DNA of 64,000 bases from Methylophaga sp. OBS1 (GTDB taxonomy: Bacteria; Pseudomonadota; Gammaproteobacteria; Nitrosococcales; Methylophagaceae), in NCBI RefSeq assembly GCF_026319365.1, contig NZ_JAPDMS010000004.1, positions 310,001-374,000 of the forward strand, in the 5' to 3' direction. A program made the translations under genes and the position numbers. The notes below the pieces were generated by a model that was not told where the DNA came from, did no database searches, and saw only the letters and a program-made list of their open reading frames with translations. Within the stretch, counting starts at the first letter, position 1. Every line of letters begins with the position of its first letter. Of this stretch, positions 5,239 through 64,000 are shown in pieces.

Positions 5239-6000
5239 ATGGCTTTATCGCATAACCTCAACCTGGCTAGTCAGGGAACATCCCTTAAAGCACTGTTCAG
5301 CGGCTACTTGATCGTTGTTGCTGTCGGTTATCTGATGGCCGTCGTTCAGATTCAACTGACCCACGGTCTTGCCGACGGTGAATATGGCCTGTCAATTGAT
5401 GACATCGTCTACAGCTATTATGGGAACCGCAGTAACTCATTACTGGAAAACAAACTGCACGGCTCCATGAAGCCGATGGCTACCGATGAGGAACGGGATG
5501 CGATCATCAACTGGATTCATCAGGGCGCGACCGAAGAAGCTTATCAGGAACAGGGTATTCAGAGCATTTTTGAATCCAAGTGTATTGTCTGTCACAACGC
5601 TGATGGTGGTGGTATCCCTGATTACAGCGATTTTCAGAACATCAAAGACCGCGCCCTGGTTGATACCGGTGTCAGCATCTCGGCGCTGGCTCGCGTCTCG
5701 CACATTCACTTGTTCGGTATCGCCTTTATCTTTATGTTTGTCGGCCTGATCTTCAGTTTGGCCGCTGGCGTACCCAAGCCGCTCAAGGTGATTGCCATCT
5801 CCACACCGTATGTTTTTCTTCTGGTGGATATCGCCTCCTGGTGGTTAACCAAACTGAATCCTAATTTCGCCTGGCTTGTTATCATTGCCGGTGGGTCAAT
5901 GGCCTTGTCATTTGCCTTTATGTGGACCGTCTCCATGTACGAAATGTGGATCCTGCCACGCCGCGGTGTTGATGACCGCGATGCGCTACTGGATGAATAA
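5239..6000 (+). CDS. Membrane protein with a single c-type haem motif, family not recognised
   Basis: 253 residues. One membrane span near 18-40, a soluble segment of about 110 residues with a haem c motif C115-I-V-C118-H119, then three membrane spans near 156-177, 183-203 and 211-238. If residues 41-155 are periplasmic, as haem c attachment requires, the C-terminus is cytoplasmic. His155 and His157 lie at the membrane edge of the second span and are candidate haem or quinone-site ligands, which is inference. The layout suggests an electron-transfer protein but no family was recognised. AAAGGAAAAACC provides the RBS. It is monocistronic and ends in a strong terminator. Confidence 0.75.
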   Translation: MALSHNLNLASQGTSLKALFSGYLIVVAVGYLMAVVQIQLTHGLADGEYGLSIDDIVYSYYGNRSNSLLENKLHGSMKPMATDEERDAIINWIHQGATEEAYQEQGIQSIFESKCIVCHNADGGGIPDYSDFQNIKDRALVDTGVSISALARVSHIHLFGIAFIFMFVGLIFSLAAGVPKPLKVIAISTPYVFLLVDIASWWLTKLNPNFAWLVIIAGGSMALSFAFMWTVSMYEMWILPRRGVDDRDALLDE

Positions 6001-6027
6001 TAATTAGTTTCCGAACTTAATTCAGGA

Positions 6028-6061
6028 AAAGCCATTGTTTTAATAGCAATGGCTTTTTTTT
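6028..6061 (+). terminator. Intrinsic terminator after the membrane haem protein
   Basis: Stem AAAGCCATTG (6028-6037) with CAATGGCTTT (6047-6056), 9-nt loop, T-run to 6061. A second, weaker hairpin, ACACC/GGTGT at 6088-6103, followed by a T-run at 6106-6112, may act as a backup. Confidence 0.88.
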
Positions 6062-6192
6062 ATGCTTTTCATGACCTTGCCTTAATCACACCGCCTCGGG
6101 TGTCGTTTTTTTAGCTGCGACAAACGTAAATTTCTTGGATTTTTCTTTTTTCTTGTCGTAAAAAATCATGAGGCGAATAAGAAAAGGAGGTC

Positions 6193-9100
6193 ATGGTGGA
6201 TAATCTCTGGTTGCTCTTATCGGCATTCCTGGTTTTTACGATGCAGGCCGGCTTTCTGTGTTTGGAAAGTGGTCTGGTCAGAAGTAAAAACAGTATCAAT
6301 GTCGCGGCCAAGAATATCACTGACTTTACCCTGGCCAGTGCCATATTCTGGCTACTTGGCTTTGGCATTATGTTCGGCCATTCTGCTGTAGGATGGTTCG
6401 GCACCAGTGATTTTGCCTTTGGTGGTGACAGTTCGGCTGGTGTCATTACCTTTTTTATTTTCCAGATGATGTTCTGCGGAACAGCAGCAACATTAGTCTC
6501 CGGTGCCGTTGCCGAGCGAACCAGTTACATTGGTTATGTGTTTATTACCATTGTTATTTCACTGTTTATTTACCCCGTTATCGGTCACTGGGCGTGGTCG
6601 GGCATTCTGTCTGGGCAAGCCACAGGCTGGCTGGAGAAACTGGGTTTTATTGATTTCGCCGGTTCCACTATCGTTCACTCTGTCGGTGGCTGGGTCGCGC
6701 TGGCAGCAATTATGATTATCGGTCCCAGAATCGGCCGTTATGATCTGTCCGAACGTCGTATTCCGGGCAGCAACCTGCCATTAGCGGTTCTGGGTGGGCT
6801 GCTGATATGGTTCGGCTGGTTTGGTTTCAACGGTGGCAGCACACTGGTCTGGGATAATACGGTGCCCGGGATCATCCTCAATACCCTCCTCGCAGCTGTT
6901 TGGGGTGGGATCGCCACCACACTGATCAAATACCTCTCTGACGGCTATATTGATGTATTGATGATCATTAATGGCGCACTGGGTGGCCTGGTATCAATCA
7001 CCGCGAACTGTCATGTTGTTACCCCGCTGGAGGCAATGTTGATAGGCGTCATCGGTGGTGCCATCGTGTTTTATGGTGATCGCCTGATGGATCGGAAAAA
7101 GCTTGATGACGCGATCGGGGTTGTACCGGTTCATCTGTTTGCCGGTATCTGGGGCACACTGGCTGTCGCCTTGTTCGGCAGTACTGAAAAAATTGGCAAT
7201 GGTTTAACCTTGTCAGAACAGCTGATGGTGCAGGGACTGGGCGTTATCAGTATTGGTCTCTACAGTTTTTGTGTTGCTTATTTTCTGTTCAAAATCATCA
7301 ACCGCTTTTATTCTTTTCGGGTTGATTCTCAGTCAGAACTCATTGGCCTCAATGTCGCCGAGCACAGAGTCAGCACCGAGGTATTTGACCTGCTGGCTGC
7401 GATGCAGAATCAGCAAAAACAATCTGACTTTTCATCGCGCGTTCCTGAAGAACCTTTTACCGAAGTCGGACAAATTGCGCAGCAATATAATCGCGTTATT
7501 GACAAGGTGAACCAGGAAATTGATCAACGGGATCAGGCCTTTAATGCCTTCAAACAAAGCGAGTTTCGTAAGGGCGCTATTCTTCAGGCTGCAATGGACT
7601 GCATAGTCACCATCAATGCCCGGGGTAAAGTCATTGAGTTCAATCCGGCTGCTGAACAGTGTTTTGGCATGTCGCGTAAGTCAGTATTGGGCGAAAACTT
7701 CTTCAACCTGTTTATCTCAACCGACTCCCGGACAGCAGCTTTAAGCAGTTTGTCACAGGGTTTTGTTGCCGGGGATGGCTTAGTCTTAAAACGGCAGAAT
7801 ATTACTGAGCTCGCGCGCAGCGATGGTGAGGAATTTCCGGCCGAAGTTGTTATCACGCAAACAACGGACAGCAATCATCCACAAGTTGAGTACACACTGC
7901 ACATCCGGGACATCACAAAACAAATTAAACTGCAAAATCGTCTCAAACAACTGGCTTACAACGATCCTCTGACCGGTTTGTATAACCGCACCTACTTCCT
8001 TAACAATCTCAAGCAGCGGATTGAATACCACCGTCAGGTGGCTGGGTCAGTGGTTCTGATGTTTCTGGATCTCGATCAATTCAAAAAAATTAATGATAAC
8101 CTCGGGCATCAGGCCGGTGATGATCTTCTCTGTGAAGTAGCAAAACGGCTGTCCGCCGTCACCAGAGAGCTGGATCTGGTTGGTCGTTGGGGCGGTGACG
8201 AGTTTGTTGTTGTTTTATCTGGTGAGATAAACCAGCAGGATGCTGAAAACAAAGCGATTCAGATTCTTGAAGCCATGCAGATGCCGGTACATCTGAGTCA
8301 AGAGACACTGATAGTCAGAACCAGCATCGGGATTGCCATTTCAGAACATGGAAAGATTAACTCTGAACAACTCATGCAGCAGGCAGATATTGCGATGTAC
8401 CGCGCGAAGCAGGCAGGACGAAATACTTATCGCATTTATCTCGAAGAAATGAGTGAAAAGAACAAGCAACAGTTTGAGCTGGAAAATGCACTTCCTGAAG
8501 CGATTAAACAAGATCAACTGCTATTGCATTACCAGCCCAAAGTCTCAATTGAAACCAATGAAGTAGTGGGCTTCGAGGCATTGATTCGCTGGCAGCATCC
8601 AGAATACGGGTTAATCATGCCCGGCGATTTTATTCATCTTATCGATGGCTCGAACCTGATTATTGAACTGGATGAATGGGTTATCACAACCGTAATAAAA
8701 CAGTTGGCCTCATGGCGAGAAAGTGGTTCTCCACTGTTACCGGTAGCCATTAATGTCTCCGGCCAGCACCTGCATACCAAAACGCTGTCGACATTGATCT
8801 CAGACCAGCTGCAACAATATGAGCTTAATGCAGAGCTATTGGAGATCGAAATTACGGAAGGCGTGCTCACCGGCAATACCGATGAGAGTATTGCGGCGAT
8901 GAAGGCCCTCAAAAGAACAGGTATCAGACTGTCAATTGATGACTTCGGAACCGGCTATTCCTCATTGAGCTACTTGAAAAAATTTCCGGTTGATATTCTG
9001 AAAATTGATCAGGCCTTCATTCGCGAATGTCAGAGTAATCGCGAAGATGCTGCAATCTGTAAAGCCATCATCACACTGGGGAAAAGTCTTGGTCTGATCA

Positions 9101-9243
9101 TCATCGCCGAGGGCGTTGAGACCGAGGAGCAGCTAAGCTTTTTGAAGCTTAACCATTGTGATATTTACCAGGGATATTATTACAGTCGTCCGATACCGGT
9201 CGACAATATTGCCGCGCTCCTGGAACAAAGACTTCCAGCGTGA
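6193..9243 (+). CDS. Ammonium transporter domain fused to PAS, GGDEF and EAL domains
   Basis: 1016 residues. Residues 1 to about 385 are a complete Amt/Rh domain with the signature DFAGSTIVHSVGGWVALAA and the twin pore histidines His162 and His314. A linker (about 390-455) resembles a HAMP-like helix, a PAS domain follows (about 459-575), then a GGDEF domain with GGDEF at 667-671 and an RxxD inhibitory site at 658-661. The EAL domain has EAL at 795-797, DDFGTGYSSL at 916-925 and the EGVETEEQ and QGYYYSRP motifs, so both cyclase and phosphodiesterase sites look intact. The inferred role is coupling of external ammonium to cyclic-di-GMP. AGGAGG is only 2 bases before the ATG at 6193; the second codon, GTG at 6196, has better spacing and may be the real start. 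No glnK is adjacent. Its stop abuts the convergent uup gene. Confidence 0.95.
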   Translation: MVDNLWLLLSAFLVFTMQAGFLCLESGLVRSKNSINVAAKNITDFTLASAIFWLLGFGIMFGHSAVGWFGTSDFAFGGDSSAGVITFFIFQMMFCGTAATLVSGAVAERTSYIGYVFITIVISLFIYPVIGHWAWSGILSGQATGWLEKLGFIDFAGSTIVHSVGGWVALAAIMIIGPRIGRYDLSERRIPGSNLPLAVLGGLLIWFGWFGFNGGSTLVWDNTVPGIILNTLLAAVWGGIATTLIKYLSDGYIDVLMIINGALGGLVSITANCHVVTPLEAMLIGVIGGAIVFYGDRLMDRKKLDDAIGVVPVHLFAGIWGTLAVALFGSTEKIGNGLTLSEQLMVQGLGVISIGLYSFCVAYFLFKIINRFYSFRVDSQSELIGLNVAEHRVSTEVFDLLAAMQNQQKQSDFSSRVPEEPFTEVGQIAQQYNRVIDKVNQEIDQRDQAFNAFKQSEFRKGAILQAAMDCIVTINARGKVIEFNPAAEQCFGMSRKSVLGENFFNLFISTDSRTAALSSLSQGFVAGDGLVLKRQNITELARSDGEEFPAEVVITQTTDSNHPQVEYTLHIRDITKQIKLQNRLKQLAYNDPLTGLYNRTYFLNNLKQRIEYHRQVAGSVVLMFLDLDQFKKINDNLGHQAGDDLLCEVAKRLSAVTRELDLVGRWGGDEFVVVLSGEINQQDAENKAIQILEAMQMPVHLSQETLIVRTSIGIAISEHGKINSEQLMQQADIAMYRAKQAGRNTYRIYLEEMSEKNKQQFELENALPEAIKQDQLLLHYQPKVSIETNEVVGFEALIRWQHPEYGLIMPGDFIHLIDGSNLIIELDEWVITTVIKQLASWRESGSPLLPVAINVSGQHLHTKTLSTLISDQLQQYELNAELLEIEITEGVLTGNTDESIAAMKALKRTGIRLSIDDFGTGYSSLSYLKKFPVDILKIDQAFIRECQSNREDAAICKAIITLGKSLGLIIIAEGVETEEQLSFLKLNHCDIYQGYYYSRPIPVDNIAALLEQRLPA

Positions 9244-11142
9244 TTACTCACCCTGTTTGGCCTCCAGCGTTTCCCAGCGTTCATAAGCAGCTGCCAGTTC
9301 TGTTTCCAGTGCCGCAACCTGCTGCTGGACCTCAGTGATCCTGGCCGCGTCCTGCTGGTAAAAACCGGGATCGGACATCTGGTCGTTAAAAGCCTGTTGT
9401 CTGGCTTCCAGTTCTTCAATTTTGGCCGGCAGCGCTTTCAGATCCAGTTGCTCCTGATAGGTCAGCTTGGATTTCTTTTTCTGTGCGACGGGTTGTTCCG
9501 CCTGCTTTGTTTTGGCCGGTGCAGCCGTCGATTTTTGTTTCTGCGTCTGTTGCCACTGGCGCTGCCAGTCCTCATAGCCACCAACGTATTCGCGCAGGCC
9601 GCCATCTGGATCAAAAACGATACTGCTGGTGACGACATTATTCAGGAAAGCCCGGTCATGGCTGACCAGCAGCAGCGTGCCACTGTAATTCAGCAGTAAA
9701 TCTTCCAGCAATTCCAGGGTTTCGGCATCAAGATCGTTGGTCGGTTCGTCCATCACCAGCAAATTCGCTGGCTGGGTGAATAATTTCGCCAGCAGCAGAC
9801 GGTTACGTTCGCCGCCTGATAGAGCTTTAACCGGCGTTCTTGCCCGCTCAGGTGTGAACAGGAAGTCCTGCAGATAACCGATAATATGCTTACGGCTGCC
9901 GTTGATATCGACGTGGTCGCTGCCCTGCCCGACGTTCTGCACCACGCTCTCCTCTTCATCAAGCTGGCTGCGCAGTTGATCAAAAAAAGCAATCTCCAGA
10001 TTGGTCCCCAGTTTCACCTCACCTTTTTCCGGCGTCTGGCGTTTCAGCAGTATCGACAACAGTGTGCTTTTACCACAGCCATTGGGACCGATAATCCCGA
10101 TGCGGTCGCCGCGTTGAATGACCGTGCTGAAATCAGCAAACAGCATTTTGCCATCGTAGCTCTGACCAATATGTTCCGCCTCAATCACCAGCTTGCCACT
10201 ACGCTCGGCTTCCTGTAGCTGCATGCTGACACTGCCCTGACGCTCACGTCGCTGACTGCGTTCCTGACGCATTTTCTCCAGTGCCCTGACCCGGCCCTCA
10301 TTGCGGGTGCGCCGGGCTTTAATGCCCTGCCGGATCCAGACTTCTTCCTGAGCCAGTTTCTTGTCGAACTGGGCATTTTGTTCGGCTTCAGCCGCCAGCA
10401 TCTCTTCACGTTTTCTCAGGTAATTGTGATAGTCACCGGGAAAGCTGGCCAGCTGGCCCCGATCCAGTTGCACAATCCGGGTTGCCAGCGCCTGCAGGAA
10501 TGTTCGATCGTGAGTAATGAACAGCAGGGTACCGCCATAGTTTTTCAGAAACCCTTCCAGCCAGGTAATCGACTCAATATCCAGGTGGTTGGTGGGCTCA
10601 TCCAGCAGCAGAATATCCGGTTGTTTTACCAGCGCCTGTGCCAGCAGAACACGACGCTTTTTCCCGCCCGACAGGCTGTCAAAATCGGCATCCGGATCCA
10701 GCGACAAGCGTGAAATCACCGTCTCTACCCGCTGTTCCAATGACCAGCCATCAGCTGCTTCCAGTTTGTGCTGGGCCTTCTCCAGTTTGTTTAATAAGGC
10801 CTCACTGCTATCAGTCTGCAGCTCGTGCAGAAGATGGTGATACTCGACCAGCAGCGGTGTGACTTCCCCCAGCCCCGTGGCGACCACATCAAATACACTG
10901 CCGTGGGTGCCTATCGGAACTTCCTGTTCCAGCCGGGCAATTTTGATCGACTGACCACCGACAATTTCACCGCTGTCAGCTTTAATTTCACCCGCGATAA
11001 GCTTCATCAGGGTGGATTTCCCGGCCCCGTTACGGCCGACCAGACAGACCCGTTCCCCGCGATCGAGCTGAAAGTCGACCTTGTCCAGAAGATTGGGACC
11101 GCCATAGCTGACGGTGACTTGTTTTAATGACAAAAGTGCCAA
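9244..11142 (-). CDS. uup: ABC-F ATPase Uup
   Basis: 632 residues with two ATP-binding cassettes: Walker A GRNGAGKS near 36-43 and GPNGCGKS in the second half, with signatures LSGGKKRRVLL and LSGGERNRLLL. A basic inter-domain linker (RTRNEGRVRALEKMR) and a C-terminal coiled coil of about 90 residues identify Uup rather than EttA or YbiT. ABC-F proteins act on the ribosome; Uup is linked to ribosome function, transposon precise excision and branched DNA binding. The start is TTG, with GAGGAA seven bases upstream. It begins 3 bases after the yheS stop, so the two genes form an operon. Confidence 0.93.
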   Translation of the reverse strand: MALLSLKQVTVSYGGPNLLDKVDFQLDRGERVCLVGRNGAGKSTLMKLIAGEIKADSGEIVGGQSIKIARLEQEVPIGTHGSVFDVVATGLGEVTPLLVEYHHLLHELQTDSSEALLNKLEKAQHKLEAADGWSLEQRVETVISRLSLDPDADFDSLSGGKKRRVLLAQALVKQPDILLLDEPTNHLDIESITWLEGFLKNYGGTLLFITHDRTFLQALATRIVQLDRGQLASFPGDYHNYLRKREEMLAAEAEQNAQFDKKLAQEEVWIRQGIKARRTRNEGRVRALEKMRQERSQRRERQGSVSMQLQEAERSGKLVIEAEHIGQSYDGKMLFADFSTVIQRGDRIGIIGPNGCGKSTLLSILLKRQTPEKGEVKLGTNLEIAFFDQLRSQLDEEESVVQNVGQGSDHVDINGSRKHIIGYLQDFLFTPERARTPVKALSGGERNRLLLAKLFTQPANLLVMDEPTNDLDAETLELLEDLLLNYSGTLLLVSHDRAFLNNVVTSSIVFDPDGGLREYVGGYEDWQRQWQQTQKQKSTAAPAKTKQAEQPVAQKKKSKLTYQEQLDLKALPAKIEELEARQQAFNDQMSDPGFYQQDAARITEVQQQVAALETELAAAYERWETLEAKQGE

Positions 11143-11145
11143 AGT

Positions 11146-13035
11146 CTATTCCTCATCGGCTTCAGCCGATTCCAGTTGTTCGCTGGCTTGCAGCCAGTCA
11201 GTTTCGGTTTGTTCCAGGGCCGCTTTGAGATCCGCCTGTTGCGCCAGCAGCGTTTTTAACTTGTCTTTGCCGGCCTCGGAGTAGAGCGAGTTATCGGCCA
11301 GCTGCGTTTCCAGTTGGGTCAGAGAGTGAGTCAGTTTCTCCATCTCTTTTTCCGCAGATTTCAGCTTGTTTCGGATCGGCTGCAATTTCTGTCGGCGCGC
11401 AGCGGCCGCCTGACGATCCTGTTTTTTATTGGATGGCCCTTGTTCCGTCGGCTTTTTCTCCTGCCGCTCCTGCTCTTGCAGCCACTGACGATAATCATCC
11501 AAATCGCCATCAAAGGGTCGGGCCTGGCCGCCAGCCACCAGCAACAGGTCATCCGTCACTGTACGCAGAAGATGCCGGTCATGCGAGACGACCACCAGAG
11601 CACCTTCAAATTCCTGCAGCGCCACTGTCAGCGCCAGTCGCATCTCCAGGTCAAGGTGGTTGGTGGGCTCATCCAGCAGCAGCAAGGCGGGTTTTTGATA
11701 GACCAGAATAGCCAGTACCAGACGCGCTTTTTCACCACCGGAGAACGGCGCCACTTTTTCCAGCGCCTTGTCACCATGAAAACCGAAACCACCCAGAAAG
11801 TCGCGCAGCTCCTGCTCACTGGCACGTGGATCCAGCCGCTGCAAATGTCGCAGTGGACTGTCTTCCGGACGAAGTTGTTCCAGTTGATGCTGGGCAAAGT
11901 AACCTATGCGGATATCTTTGGCTTCACGGCGTTTACCTGCCAGTGGCGTCAGCACCCCGGCGATCAATTTTATTAGCGTCGATTTGCCCGCGCCGTTGGG
12001 GCCCAGTAAGCCCAGTCTGTCGCCCGGAGCCAGACTCAATTCAATATGCTCCAGCAGCGGCGTGTCATGATAGCCTACGGCCGCTTTGTCGAGGCTCAAC
12101 AGCGGTGTCGTCAACCGCGTGGGGGGCAGAAAGTTGAAATGAAACGGCGAGTCCACATGCGCTGGCGCTATCAGTTCCATTCGTTCCAGCGCTTTGACCC
12201 GGCTCTGCGCCTGGCGGGCTTTGGTTGCTTTAGCTTTGAACCGGGTCACGAAACTGCGCATATGCGCGATTTCCCGCTGTTGTTTCTGATAGGCAGATTG
12301 CTGATTGGCAAGATGCTCGGCGCGGGCCAGTTCGAAATCGGAATAATTGCCGGTGTAGAGCTTGATCCGCTCCAACTCGATATGGGCAACATGGGTGACG
12401 ACCCGATCCAGGAAGTCGCGATCATGGGAAATCACCAACAGGGTGCCGGGATAGGCGCGTAACCAGTCTTCCAGCCAGTAGACCGCTTCCAGGTCCAGAT
12501 GGTTGGTGGGTTCATCGAGTAGTAACAGATCCGATCGGCACATCAGCGCTTGCGCCAGGTTCAACCGCATGCGCCAGCCACCGGAAAAAGCGGTCACCGG
12601 CCAGTTTTCCTGACCGTTTTTAAAACCCAGCCCATGCATCAGCTTGCCGGCTCGGCTTTCAGCGGCATAGCCGTCGATACTCAGCAGTTTGTCATGCAGC
12701 TCGCTCTGACGGTGTCCATCGCCGGCTTCTTCCGCCACGGCGAGTTGTTGACGCAGGCGAGTCAGCTCGCTGTCGCCTTGCAGCACATAGTCAATCGCTG
12801 GCGTGTCGACTGCCGGTGTCTCCTGCGCCACATGTGCGATGACCCAGCTTTCGGGCAACGACACTTCGCCGCTGTCGGCGTGAAGCTCGTCGCGTAACAT
12901 CGCAAACAGGCTGGATTTGCCGGTCCCGTTGGCACCGGTCAGACCGATACGCTGTCCCGGATGAATAATCAGGTTGGCGGCTTCAAACAGCAACTTGCTG
13001 CCGCGACGCAGGGAAACCTGGCTGAATTTAATCAT
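11146..13035 (-). CDS. yheS: ABC-F ATPase YheS
   Basis: 629 residues with tandem cassettes: Walker A GANGTGKS at 34-41 and GPNGAGKS in the second half, and signatures FSGGWRMRLNLAQAL and FSGGEKARLVLA. The linker (FVTRFKAKATKARQAQSRVKALERM) is the ABC-F P-site tRNA interaction motif region. The C-terminus is a long coiled coil rich in Gln and Glu. Sequence style matches YheS, a ribosome-associated factor implicated in rescuing elongation on difficult nascent chains. It is the first gene of the yheS-uup operon. A promoter-like TACAAT followed by GCGCGCC lies upstream at 13146-13141. Confidence 0.92.
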   Translation of the reverse strand: MIKFSQVSLRRGSKLLFEAANLIIHPGQRIGLTGANGTGKSSLFAMLRDELHADSGEVSLPESWVIAHVAQETPAVDTPAIDYVLQGDSELTRLRQQLAVAEEAGDGHRQSELHDKLLSIDGYAAESRAGKLMHGLGFKNGQENWPVTAFSGGWRMRLNLAQALMCRSDLLLLDEPTNHLDLEAVYWLEDWLRAYPGTLLVISHDRDFLDRVVTHVAHIELERIKLYTGNYSDFELARAEHLANQQSAYQKQQREIAHMRSFVTRFKAKATKARQAQSRVKALERMELIAPAHVDSPFHFNFLPPTRLTTPLLSLDKAAVGYHDTPLLEHIELSLAPGDRLGLLGPNGAGKSTLIKLIAGVLTPLAGKRREAKDIRIGYFAQHQLEQLRPEDSPLRHLQRLDPRASEQELRDFLGGFGFHGDKALEKVAPFSGGEKARLVLAILVYQKPALLLLDEPTNHLDLEMRLALTVALQEFEGALVVVSHDRHLLRTVTDDLLLVAGGQARPFDGDLDDYRQWLQEQERQEKKPTEQGPSNKKQDRQAAAARRQKLQPIRNKLKSAEKEMEKLTHSLTQLETQLADNSLYSEAGKDKLKTLLAQQADLKAALEQTETDWLQASEQLESAEADEE

Positions 13036-18234: not shown

Positions 18235-18241
18235 GTCTGTG

Positions 18242-18247
18242 TATAAT
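18242..18247 (+). promoter_or_regulatory. Putative -10 of ybiT with GC-rich discriminator
   Basis: A perfect TATAAT followed by GGCGGG, starting 8 bases after the GIY-YIG stop. No good -35 is seen at 17 bases (TATTCG). The element lies where an extended in-frame GTG start at 18239 would fall, which supports the internal TTG as the true ybiT start. Confidence 0.5.
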
Positions 18248-18298
18248 GGCGGGTTTTTCACGTCGCCCGTCGACTTTCCTAACGACAGGATTTCTCTC

Positions 18299-19894
18299 TT
18301 GCTAAGCACAGCTAACCTCACCATGCAATTCGGGGCCAAGCCCCTGTTCGAAAACGTCTCGGTCAAGTTCGGAGACGGCAACCGCTACGGCCTTATCGGC
18401 GCCAATGGCTGCGGTAAGTCCACCTTCATGAAAATTCTGGCTGGCGATCAGGAACCGACCTCCGGTAATGTCAGCTGGGATCCGAATGAATCCTTCGCCG
18501 TATTGAAACAGGATCAGTTCGCTTATGAGGATCAGCGGGTCATCGATGTGGTGATCATGGGCGATAAAGCGCTGTGGGAAGTGCATCATGAGCGCGATCG
18601 TATCTATAGTTTGCCGGAGATGAGTGAGGAAGACGGTATCAAGGTCGCTGAACTCGAAGGCCAGTACGCCGAACTCGACGGTTACACCGCCGAAGCCCGC
18701 GCCGGCGAATTATTGCTGGGTGTGGGGATTCCGGTGGAACAGCATTACGGGCCTATGAGTGAAATCGCACCGGGCTGGAAGCTGCGTATTCTGCTGGCGC
18801 AGGTACTGTTTGCCGATCCCGATATTCTGTTGCTCGACGAACCGACCAACCACCTGGATATCAACACCATCCGCTGGCTGGAAGATATTCTCAATCAGCG
18901 AAACAGCACCATGGTCATCATTTCGCATGACCGCCACTTTCTTAACAGTGTCTGCACCCATATGGCGGATATGGATTATGGCGAGTTGCGTGTTTATCCC
19001 GGTAACTATGATGATTACATGATTGCTTCCACTCAGGCCCGCGAACGCCTGCAGGCGGATAATGCCAAGAAAAAAGCGCAGATTAAGGAATTGCAGGAGT
19101 TTGTCTCGCGTTTTTCGGCCAATGCTTCCAAGGCCAAACAAGCGACTTCGCGTCAGAAGCAGATTGAAAAAATCCAGCTTGATGACATTAAACCGTCGAG
19201 CCGCGTTAACCCCTATATTCGTTTTACTCAGGACAAAAAACTGTTTCGTAACGCGCTGGAAGTCAGCAAAGTCAGTCAGTTCTTCGACGGTGACAAACCG
19301 TTGTTTGATAATTTCAGCTTTATCACCGAAGTAGGCGAGCGCATTGCGATTATCGGCCCCAACGGGATAGGTAAATCCACCCTGGTCAAAACCCTGGTCG
19401 GTGATATGCCGCCTAAAAGCGGTGAAGTGAAATGGTCGGAAAACGCCAATATCGGTTACTACGCCCAGGACCACGACCATCTGTTTAAAAACGACATGAA
19501 CCTGTATGACTGGATGGCACAGTGGGCCGGTCCCGAGGACGATGAACAGGTAATCCGCGGTACGCTGGGGCGTCTACTGTTTTCAGGACATATGATCGAT
19601 AAAAAAGTGAATGTCCTATCCGGTGGTGAAAAAGGCCGCATGCTGCTGGGCAAGCTGATTCTGCAACGTCCCAACATCCTGGTCATGGACGAACCTACCA
19701 ACCATATGGATATGGAATCGATCGAATCACTGAATATGGCGCTGGAGCAGTTCGATGGCACGCTGTTCTTCGTCAGTCATGACCGTGAATTCGTCTCCTC
19801 ACTCGCAACCCGCATTTTTGATATGGAAGCCGAAGGTCTGACTGACTTCCATGGCAGCTATGATGAGTACTTGCAAAGCCTGGGCATTGGTTAG
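18299..19894 (+). CDS. ybiT: ABC-F ATPase YbiT
   Basis: 531 residues from a TTG at 18299, matching the family length and its N-terminus ([23 protein letters not shown] region). AGGA lies 9 bases upstream. A GTG at 18239 would add 20 residues but coincides with the promoter -10. Two cassettes: GANGCGKS and GPNGIGKS Walker A, with LDEPTNHLD and MDEPTNHMD Walker B. The linker [25 protein letters not shown] and the sentence-like block [21 protein letters not shown] are characteristic of YbiT. It is a ribosome-associated translation factor of incompletely known role. It is the third ABC-F gene in the window. Confidence 0.94.
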
Positions 19895-62332: not shown

Positions 62333-63847
62333 ATGGATACCGACAATCACAATACGTCTCCCAATAGCGACCTCATTGAAGATCTCGAAAAATATAAACT
62401 GCTAACCGGTTCAATACCGGTCTCTCTATTTATCAGCACCTGTCTCGCGGTCATTATGGCGACTGTTCTCGATGATCAGGTTAACTACGGTACGCTGCTC
62501 TCATGGCTGATCATACTGGTGAGCCTTCACATCATCCGCTTACTGGTCTTTTACCAATTCAACCGCTCAGTGAGCATTGATCACCAACAGATTCAACTAC
62601 ATCTTCAATTTTTCAGGTTTGGCACATTGATGTCCGGTCTGATCTGGGGTTGGGCGGGATTTTTCTTTTCTCAGCAGGTTGAGTTGAGTTACCAATTGTT
62701 TATCACCTTCACTCTGGGCGGTCTGGTGGTGGGTGCGACTTCATCGCTTGCCACCGACAGAGTGGCTGTGGTCAGTTTTATTATGGCAACCATATTACCC
62801 AACAGCCTCCATTACTTCATTGCTGGCAATGAACTGCCGTTGGCAATGGGCCTGATGCTGATGTTGTTTGCCGGTTTCATGCTTAATACGGGACGCTTAC
62901 AGGGAACCAGCCTGCACGAGAACCTGAATCTCAGAATTCGAGCCAGACAAGATGCCAGCCAGTTCCGTGAAGTATTGAATTTCAGTCCGGTCGCGGTCAG
63001 CATTTTCAGCCTGAGTGATGAGCAGACACTCTACGTTAACAGGCGTTATCTGGAGTTGTTCAGTCGCAGTTTTAAACCTTTCGATACTAAAAAACGGGCC
63101 GGGTTCGCCATCGAAGAAACGCAGATTGAATCTATCAAAGAACGATTGCAGCGAAATCAAACGGTTTCCAATCTGTTACTCAAGGTCACGTCGAGTCATT
63201 CAGAGGAGGTGAAGTGGTGCATCGGCTCTTTTCTGAAGGTGAATTACCTTAACACGCCTTCAATCCTGGCCTGGTTCTACGACATCACTGACCGGATTGA
63301 GATGGAACAGAAAATCCGCCATCTCGCCTATCATGATTCTCTGACCGATTTACCCAACCGTACTTTGTTCGAGGATAGGCTGAGTCTGGCGCTGAAGTAT
63401 GCGTCTCGAAATCAGCTGCGACTGGGCGTTTTATTCATCGATCTGGATGGATTCAAAGCGATCAATGACAGCTATGGACATGATGTTGGGGATTTGTTGC
63501 TAAAGGCCGTATCTGAGCGTATCACCTCATTATTACGGCTATCTGACACACTCTCCCGTGTTGGCGGTGATGAATTCGTCGTTCTGCTACCGGAAATCGA
63601 CAGCATTGATGACGGTCTGCATGTTGCCGAGAAACTACTGACAGCATTAGCGCTGCCAATAGATATCGATGATTACAAGCTTCAGGTTTCAGCCAGTATT
63701 GGCCTTGCCCTCTATCCCGAACATGGTGATGACGATCAGACCTTGCTGAAAAAGGCCGATATCGCGATGTACGAAGCCAAGAAACGTGGTAAAAATACGG
63801 TGCGGGTATACCAGTCTGAAAACGGAAATACTTCAACTCAGAGATAG
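62333..63847 (+). CDS. Membrane diguanylate cyclase with PAS and GGDEF domains
   Basis: 504 residues. About six membrane spans in residues 25-190 form an unrecognised sensor, then a PAS-like domain (about 215-330; FREVLNFSPVAVSIFSL...YDITDRIEMEQKIR) and a GGDEF domain with intact GGDEF at 411-415 and an RxxD inhibitory site at 402-405. It should make cyclic-di-GMP with product inhibition. No EAL domain. The stop is 6 bases from the 3' end of the convergent rnpB. Confidence 0.92.
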   Translation: MDTDNHNTSPNSDLIEDLEKYKLLTGSIPVSLFISTCLAVIMATVLDDQVNYGTLLSWLIILVSLHIIRLLVFYQFNRSVSIDHQQIQLHLQFFRFGTLMSGLIWGWAGFFFSQQVELSYQLFITFTLGGLVVGATSSLATDRVAVVSFIMATILPNSLHYFIAGNELPLAMGLMLMLFAGFMLNTGRLQGTSLHENLNLRIRARQDASQFREVLNFSPVAVSIFSLSDEQTLYVNRRYLELFSRSFKPFDTKKRAGFAIEETQIESIKERLQRNQTVSNLLLKVTSSHSEEVKWCIGSFLKVNYLNTPSILAWFYDITDRIEMEQKIRHLAYHDSLTDLPNRTLFEDRLSLALKYASRNQLRLGVLFIDLDGFKAINDSYGHDVGDLLLKAVSERITSLLRLSDTLSRVGGDEFVVLLPEIDSIDDGLHVAEKLLTALALPIDIDDYKLQVSASIGLALYPEHGDDDQTLLKKADIAMYEAKKRGKNTVRVYQSENGNTSTQR

Positions 63848-63853
63848 AAAATA

Positions 63854-64000
63854 AGGTTGAGACGACCATAAGCCGGGTTCTGTCGAGGACAATCATTCAT
63901 CTGGGACTGATGTCACCATCAGCCTCAAGCAACCTACCCGGGAACAGTGCGGGTCGCACATGATGTTCCCCTATTTGGTCTTGCTCCAGGTGGGGTTTAC
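63854..64000 (-). ncRNA. rnpB: RNase P RNA, class A, 3' part
   Basis: Read on the minus strand, the segment contains the conserved blocks GGAGCAAGACCAAATAGGGG, then CCGGGTAGG...TGCTTGAG, AGATGAATGA and CGACAGAACCCGGCTTAT in the right order and spacing for bacterial type A RNase P RNA. The mature 3' end is placed near 63854 by comparison with the E. coli ...TTTCACCT end. The 5' half lies beyond the window. It matures tRNA 5' ends. Confidence 0.95.

What the first reader, a model, noticed from the sequence alone, without database searches (positions are those of the whole stretch)
6193..9243. Ammonium channel fused to PAS-GGDEF-EAL: a possible ammonium receptor for cyclic-di-GMP
A full Amt domain with both pore histidines (162, 314) is joined through a HAMP-like linker and PAS domain to GGDEF and EAL domains whose catalytic motifs all look intact, including the RxxD inhibitory site. 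Amt domains fused to histidine kinases are known; a fusion carrying both synthesis and breakdown of cyclic-di-GMP would let ammonium availability or flux tune motility and biofilm directly. No glnK neighbour is present, so it may be a sensor rather than the main transporter.
Basis: partly seen in the sequence, partly recalled or inferred. Interest (0 to 1): 0.78.

Follow-up and report, generated by a model that had tools for sequence, protein, structure and literature searches.

The report
Ammonium receptor wired to cyclic-di-GMP enzymes
This gene joins an ammonium-channel-shaped sensor to a pair of enzyme domains that make and break the bacterial signal cyclic-di-GMP; it belongs to a widespread bacterial family and is very probably an ammonium receptor of a kind already known, with a richer output.

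Summary
Confirmed: window 6193-9243 (+) encodes an intact Amt / HAMP-like / PAS / GGDEF / EAL protein of 1016 residues. It is not unique: of the 80 best genome loci, 78 carry a full-length copy and two run off contig ends. The Amt half is closest to Sd-Amt1, deposited as a receptor with ON and OFF states, and keeps the two-ammonium site first seen in the Amt-kinase Ks-Amt5. None of 18 stand-alone Amts checked in 12 related genomes has the full site, and all 12 genomes carry a separate PII-linked amt. The GGDEF and EAL catalytic residues are kept in every family copy with letters there. I read it as an ammonium receptor controlling c-di-GMP turnover, not the uptake channel: a new variant of a known kind. 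New here: other Methylophaga-genus genomes carry an Amt-PAS-PAS-GGDEF-EAL fusion whose output is RbdA-like rather than RmcA/MorA-like and whose sensor lies outside this family's clade, so the ammonium-to-c-di-GMP link seems to have been built at least twice. Direction of response and ammonium flux are untested.

The parts
6193..9243 (+). Amt-(HAMP-like)-PAS-GGDEF-EAL fusion gene, 1016 aa (1015 if the GTG at 6196 is the start)
6184..6190 (+). Shine-Dalgarno-like AAGGAGG
   Evidence: read directly
6024..6060 (+). terminator-like hairpin (16 pairs) after the upstream gene; suggests a separate transcript for the fusion
   Evidence: consensus scan only
6205..7368 (+). Amt sensor domain, residues 5-392; pore residues F94, W135, H162, F212, S216, H314
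6244..6501 (+). stretch holding the predicted two-ammonium site: Q18, E25, N41, D44, T100, S103
   Evidence: alignment to Ks-Amt5 and Sd-Amt1; conservation
7378..7512 (+). HAMP-like linker, residues 396-440
   Evidence: sub-threshold; model helices
7597..7920 (+). PAS domain, residues 469-576
7954..8424 (+). GGDEF (diguanylate cyclase) domain, residues 588-744; I-site R658/D661, signature 667-671
8485..9192 (+). EAL (phosphodiesterase) domain, residues 765-1000; E795, N854, E886, D916, D917, K937, E973, Q993

Best explanation
A one-protein ammonium receptor that controls c-di-GMP turnover. Proposed steps: (1) periplasmic NH4+ is selected at the W135/S216 vestibule and settles in a two-cation site inside the membrane (Q18, E25, N41, D44, T100, S103); (2) this moves the cytoplasmic end of the Amt trimer and the HAMP-like helices; (3) the helices and PAS change how the GGDEF-EAL units pair, shifting the balance between a GTP-primed EAL phosphodiesterase (the likely ground state, as described for RmcA) and a GGDEF cyclase. 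By analogy with Sd-Amt1 (recalled) ammonium most likely favours the cyclase side. Shown here: domains, residues, conservation, fold. Inferred: ligand binding, trimer, coupling, direction.
For: Sensor: the best solved relatives of the Amt half are 8qj3/8qpf (413 bits) and Ks-Amt5 6eu6 (304), ahead of AfAmt1 (184) and E. coli AmtB (about 106); the model superposes on 'Receptor Sd-Amt1 (OFF-state)' and '(ON-state)' at TM 0.94, rmsd 1.7 A, 45% identity. At the seven Ks-Amt5 site positions the query equals Sd-Amt1 at all seven and Ks-Amt5 at five (T to F at 45, T to S at 103). Q18/E25/N41/D44 are invariant in 236 of 236 sequences (the query and 235 listed homologues, with several kinds of output); T100 in 232. 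0 of 18 stand-alone Amts from 12 related genomes have the set at 18/25/41/44/100: 12 PII-linked rows read A/E/N/L/S, a 13th V/Y/V/I/A, four others H/E/I/D/A, one T/Y/C/I/A. 12 of 12 genomes have another amt next to a PII gene, and the nearest PII on a fusion's own contig is about 258 kb away. Output: GGDEF 667-671, D626, D628, N634, D635 and the EAL residues E795, N854, E886, D916, D917, K937, E973, Q993 are invariant in every family sequence with letters there, 80 or 81 of 81. The best solved output relatives are RmcA PA0575 (358 bits) and MorA (347).
Against: Nothing was measured. E25 and N41 also occur in 12 PII-linked Amts and D44 in the L107-L110 type, so only Q18, T100 and the combination separate receptors from the 18 stand-alone Amts. 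F21/L24/L28, where Ks-Amt5 has the bulky residues said to close its pore, are exactly as in 12 PII-linked Amts, so there is no sequence evidence that this pore is shut. The AlphaFold pTM is 0.48: domain folds are good, their arrangement is not predicted. One other Amt fusion (L142) has N at 44 and A at 100. The homologue lists are ranked by similarity, and one of the two patterns of the genome scan contains Q18, so those sets lean towards it. MucR, another relative of the EAL half, is described as mainly a cyclase in PMC10874727, against a phosphodiesterase ground state.
Confidence: 0.72

Rival explanations
1. A true transceptor: the Amt half conducts ammonium and the output reads flux through the pore, not occupancy of a separate binding site.
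For: All pore residues checked (F94, W135, H162, F212, S216, H314) are kept in 81 of 81 family sequences, and F21/L24/L28 match 12 PII-linked Amts rather than the bulky Ks-Amt5 trio.
Against: The two-ammonium site of non-conducting Ks-Amt5 is conserved; each of 12 genomes has a PII-linked amt for uptake; Ks-Amt5 keeps the same pore residues yet does not efficiently translocate (PMC5764959).
Confidence: 0.2
2. The Amt half is mainly a membrane anchor; the PAS domain and GTP/c-di-GMP levels set the output and ammonium does not matter.
For: RmcA and RbdA outputs are tuned by GTP and by PAS parts (passages of PMC7825114 and PMC10874727); the PAS ligand here is unknown.
Against: An anchor would not be expected to keep Q18/E25/N41/D44 and both pore histidines in 236 of 236 sequences that include kinase, class III cyclase, SpoIIE phosphatase and GGDEF/EAL outputs.
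Confidence: 0.08
3. Information runs the other way: c-di-GMP or GTP bound by the output opens or closes ammonium transport.
For: Amt pores can be gated from the cytoplasmic side by GlnK (recalled); the GGDEF I-site is present in this copy.
Against: The I-site arginine is kept in only 52 of 81 family sequences, while both catalytic centres are strictly conserved, which fits an enzyme output better.
Confidence: 0.04

Closest known systems
Sd-Amt1 of Shewanella denitrificans (PDB 8qj3, 8qj4, 8qpf; Sci. Adv. 2024 eadm9441, not held; content recalled)
   Same: Amt receptor domain, 45% identity, TM 0.94; identical residues at the seven site positions; sequence match runs on into the linker, to residue 445; c-di-GMP output (recalled)
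   Different: Sd-Amt1 ends in GGDEF only (recalled; chains of 644-661 aa); this one adds PAS and an intact EAL domain, so breakdown is possible too
Ks-Amt5 of Kuenenia stuttgartiensis (6eu6; PMC5764959, parts 1-3 of 8 and some passages read)
   Same: repurposed Amt as sensor, five of seven ammonium-site residues, no glnK neighbour
   Different: histidine-kinase output, no HAMP or PAS; pore closed by bulky residues (F27, Y30, F34), of which only the first has a match here (F21)
RmcA (PA0575, 5m3c) and MorA (4rnh) of Pseudomonas aeruginosa
   Same: closest solved GGDEF-EAL tandems by sequence, 42% and 40% identity, both active sites intact
   Different: other sensors (RmcA is described as recognising arginine in the periplasm, PMC7825114 passage); no Amt
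RbdA (PA0861, 5xgb) PAS-GGDEF-EAL
   Same: same order of PAS, GGDEF and EAL; top Foldseek hit
   Different: by sequence another GGDEF-EAL subfamily: it matches the output of the second Methylophaga Amt fusion (485 bits) far better than this one (214 bits)
AmtB / PII-linked Amt transporters
   Same: Amt fold, twin histidines, Phe gate, Trp/Ser filter
   Different: no output domain, encoded beside a PII gene; the PII-linked Amts examined lack Q18, D44 and T100 (E. coli AmtB itself was not in that alignment)

Membership tests
Receptor-type (sensor) Amt, as in Ks-Amt5 and Sd-Amt1 | Amt fold with pore motifs retained | tested here: met
Receptor-type (sensor) Amt, as in Ks-Amt5 and Sd-Amt1 | intramembrane two-ammonium site residues not found together in assimilatory Amts | tested here: met
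   identical to Sd-Amt1 at seven of seven positions, to Ks-Amt5 at five; full set in 0 of 18 stand-alone Amts and 0 of 23 usable stand-alone Amts among the 30 best-scoring loci of a class sample
Receptor-type (sensor) Amt, as in Ks-Amt5 and Sd-Amt1 | covalently joined cytoplasmic output module | tested here: met
Receptor-type (sensor) Amt, as in Ks-Amt5 and Sd-Amt1 | not encoded beside glnK | tested here: met
   no PII among 13 window ORFs scanned, immediate upstream neighbours included; in 12 relatives the nearest PII is about 258 kb away or on another contig
Receptor-type (sensor) Amt, as in Ks-Amt5 and Sd-Amt1 | bulky residues closing the pore (F27, Y30, F34 of Ks-Amt5) | tested here: not met
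   F21, L24, L28, as in 12 PII-linked Amts; Sd-Amt1 itself has F, F, N, so this looks like a Ks-Amt5 trait rather than a defining one
Receptor-type (sensor) Amt, as in Ks-Amt5 and Sd-Amt1 | ammonium-dependent output activity; binding without efficient transport | not testable with these tools
   needs biochemistry
Sd-Amt1-type Amt-HAMP-GGDEF | HAMP between Amt and output | tested here: inconclusive
   HAMP 13.8 bits against cut-off 25; helix-loop-helix in the model
Bifunctional GGDEF-EAL enzyme | intact catalytic residues in both domains | tested here: met
Bifunctional GGDEF-EAL enzyme | both activities measured | not testable with these tools
   needs enzyme assays
GlnK-regulated assimilatory AmtB | neighbouring glnK and no output domain | tested here: not met

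The most novel reading that the evidence does not exclude
Ammonium-controlled, two-way c-di-GMP switching was assembled at least twice from the same kind of receptor Amt (RmcA/MorA-type output here, RbdA-type output in other Methylophaga-genus genomes, the two not found together in 24 genomes). Such proteins would form a widespread class of ammonium receptors that turn c-di-GMP up or down with ambient ammonium.
Probability: 0.35. Interest if true: 0.62.

Novelty: new variant of a known kind. Interest (0 to 1): 0.47.

Why it matters
If true, ambient ammonium directly sets a second messenger that governs attachment and motility (general role recalled) in many Gammaproteobacteria, without passing through GlnK. 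Two separately built fusions with different GGDEF-EAL outputs in one genus offer a natural comparison of how one receptor drives different enzymes. A downstream read-out exists in part of the genus: c-di-GMP-I riboswitches number 9 and 11 in two of four Methylophaga genomes searched and none in the other two, and PMC12530212 (passages) lists seven c-di-GMP riboswitches in Methylophaga strain GP59, four of them beside PEP-CTERM genes in an exopolysaccharide region.

Tried and rejected
Unique-fusion idea: rejected, the architecture is common. Operon partner: no support. Neighbours are shared within genera (Methylophaga, Marinomonas) but differ between them, no neighbour cluster reaches more than 23 of 81 loci, and 8 of 80 loci have a same-strand ORF within 60 bp. 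Pore closure argued from Ks-Amt5 residues: not supported. Check of the window's own whole genome: none is held. Promoter scan: 5 promoter-like sites against 4.1 expected, uninformative. Literature: searches showed no paper on an Amt-PAS-GGDEF-EAL protein, judged from the listed titles, abstract starts and the passages opened (several lists were cut: 20 of 24, 20 of 231, 8 of 772 and 8 of 14 papers). The key 2024 paper and the 2009 review on Amt fusions (Tremblay and Hallenbeck, seen only as a citation) were not read, so absence from print is not claimed. Other papers were opened only for passages: PMC10433425, PMC2907700, PMC11377263, PMC12530212.
Full report
What is there. Window 6193-9243 (+) is one open frame of 1016 codons; an AAGGAGG motif sits 2 bases before its ATG and 5 before a GTG one codon on, so the start may be at either. 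Pfam gives Ammonium_transp 5-392, PAS_9 469-576, GGDEF 588-744 and EAL 765-1000. The linker scores 13.8 bits for HAMP (cut-off 25) over residues 410-440, and the AlphaFold model (66 sequences, mean pLDDT 85.1, pTM 0.48) shows helices 396-410 and 424-468 with a loop between. The domain folds are dependable; their packing is not. A terminator-like hairpin at 6024-6060 and a converging gene on the other strand that ends at 9244 (an ABC-type ATPase by my reading) suggest a separate transcript.

How common it is. Of the 120 best homologues listed, 116 carry Amt, GGDEF and EAL (the other four are shorter proteins of 577-698 aa), and 115 of those 116 also a PAS accession. In 78 the frame is 1005-1053 aa; L064 is cut at its start and L067 at its end by contig ends. 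By record titles they include Methylophaga, Methylobacter, Methylomonas, Amphritea, Marinomonas, Neptuniibacter, Cycloclasticus, Hahella, Alteromonas, Aliiglaciecola, Paraglaciecola, Colwellia, Psychromonas, Aliagarivorans and Neiella. The nearest seven (76-82%) are Methylophaga records, and the five of them whose gene order I printed share the window's order (DUF4197 protein, 254-aa protein with a cytochrome c motif, fusion, two ABC-type ATPases), which places the window in or near Methylophaga. In an even sample of 114 genomes of the class at least 6, the centre genome among them, have an Amt frame over 700 aa; the listing was cut, so this is a lower bound. The five others are two Amt-PAS-GGDEF-EAL and three Amt-histidine kinases.

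Receptor or transporter. The Amt half scores 413 bits against 8qj3/8qpf, 304 against Ks-Amt5, 184 against AfAmt1 and about 106 against AmtB. Foldseek puts it on 8qj3 'Receptor Sd-Amt1 (OFF-state)' and 8qj4 '(ON-state)' at TM 0.94 and rmsd 1.7 A. PMC5764959 (parts 1-3 of 8 of the text read) reports for Ks-Amt5 two ammonium ions bound by Q24, E31, N47, D50, T51, T109 and T112, kinase output that responds to ammonium, no methylammonium response, and no efficient translocation. The matching positions here are Q18, E25, N41, D44, F45, T100 and S103, the same as Sd-Amt1 at all seven. Q18, E25, N41 and D44 are invariant in 236 of 236 sequences and T100 in 232, across histidine-kinase, class III cyclase, SpoIIE phosphatase, GGDEF and EAL outputs. 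These lists are ranked by similarity and are not a random sample. As control, 18 of the 33 non-fusion Amt matches in 12 related genomes were aligned: none has the full set. Of 30 best-scoring stand-alone loci of the class sample, 23 gave a usable Amt and none has it; 4 of 5 further fusions have it, while L142 has N44 and A100. Against a simple story: E25 and N41 are shared with 12 PII-linked Amts, D44 with the L107-L110 type, and F21/L24/L28 equal those of the 12 PII-linked Amts, so pore closure cannot be argued from sequence.

Genome setting. Each of 12 genomes holds one fusion plus other Amts, at least one of which lies beside a PII gene; no fusion has a PII closer than about 258 kb on its contig. 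Neighbours of the fusion are shared within genera but differ between them, with no neighbour cluster in more than 23 of 81 loci, and 8 of 80 loci have a same-strand ORF of 90 aa or more within 60 bp.

Output. GGDEF 667-671, D626, D628, N634, D635, E795, N854, E886, E889, D916, D917, K937, E973, E976 and Q993 are invariant in every sequence with letters there, 80 or 81 of 81 (the query and 80 loci); A796 is S and T920 is M in one sequence each; the I-site D661 is in 81 of 81 but R658 in 52. The best solved relatives of the output are RmcA PA0575 (358 bits), MorA (347), DosP (269) and RbdA (214). Passages of PMC7825114 and PMC10874727 say that RmcA and RbdA have both domains intact but act mainly as phosphodiesterases helped by GTP, that another group found RbdA to be a cyclase too, and that MorA and MucR can do both, mainly phosphodiesterase in MorA and mainly cyclase in MucR. 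So the likely ground state here is a GTP-primed phosphodiesterase, with cyclase activity available when upstream parts let GGDEF domains pair. That sign is inference.

A second, separate fusion. Among 24 genomes of the genus of M. aminisulfidivorans, 10 have the window's orthologue (76-83%), 6 a different fusion with a 53-54% identical sensor, 8 neither and none both; some of these genomes are small and may be incomplete. I fetched four of the six: two are Amt-PAS-PAS-GGDEF-EAL of 1141 aa, and in two the same parts lie in two overlapping frames. The output of one (L149) scores 485 bits against RbdA and 250 against RmcA, the reverse of the window's order. Across 79 family copies output identity to the window protein is 43-78% (sensor 57-82%), but for L146 and L149 and the related L141 and L142 it is 29-34% at 50-58% sensor identity. 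A simple motif pattern finds E-I-L and DDFGSG in L146 and L149, only DDFGSG in L141 and neither in L142, so the EAL half of L142 may be weakened. In sensor trees the window's family plus three PAS-GGDEF relatives without EAL form a clade (SH-aLRT 100 and 99) that leaves out the second kind, and holding both kinds together is rejected on a reduced set of 45 rows (AU p 0.008). Caveats: quick trees, long branches, a weakly supported backbone (receptors against stand-alone Amts 84 and 88), and the group was named after seeing the first trees. I read this as two separate assemblies of an ammonium-to-c-di-GMP receptor.

Verdict. The Sd-Amt1 paper was not held; I saw its reference and the PDB titles, and the rest about it is recalled. 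New is the PAS-GGDEF-EAL output with both centres conserved across a large family, and the evidence that such a receptor was built twice. No response to ammonium was measured or found reported for this protein in the searches named.

Noticed in passing
L146:1633-5058 (-), L149:4278-7703 (+): Other Methylophaga-genus genomes carry a second Amt-PAS-PAS-GGDEF-EAL fusion with an RbdA-type output; not found together with the window's type in 24 genomes.
   Followed up: yes
window 5239-6000 (+): 253-aa protein with a cytochrome c motif, directly upstream of the fusion; a relative lies just upstream in L001-L007 and about 5 kb upstream in L009.
   Followed up: partly
P0133, P0151, P0195 and relatives: Receptor-type Amts fused to a class III cyclase domain or a SpoIIE phosphatase (several named Leptospira), and one with a STAS domain: a broad set of Amt receptors with swapped outputs.
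   Followed up: partly
P0123, P0125, P0126: 752-759 aa Amt-PAS-GGDEF proteins without EAL that fall inside the window's family in the tree, perhaps losses of the EAL domain.
   Followed up: no
window 62333-63847 (+): A separate 504-aa protein with a GGDEF domain at its C-terminal end.
   Followed up: no
window 63854-64000 (-): RNase P RNA (class A), cut by the window end.
   Followed up: no
window 9244-13035 (-) and 18239-19894 (+): Three genes of one ABC-type ATPase cluster within 11 kb, two of them in tandem; identity as ABC-F is my reading, not searched.
   Followed up: no
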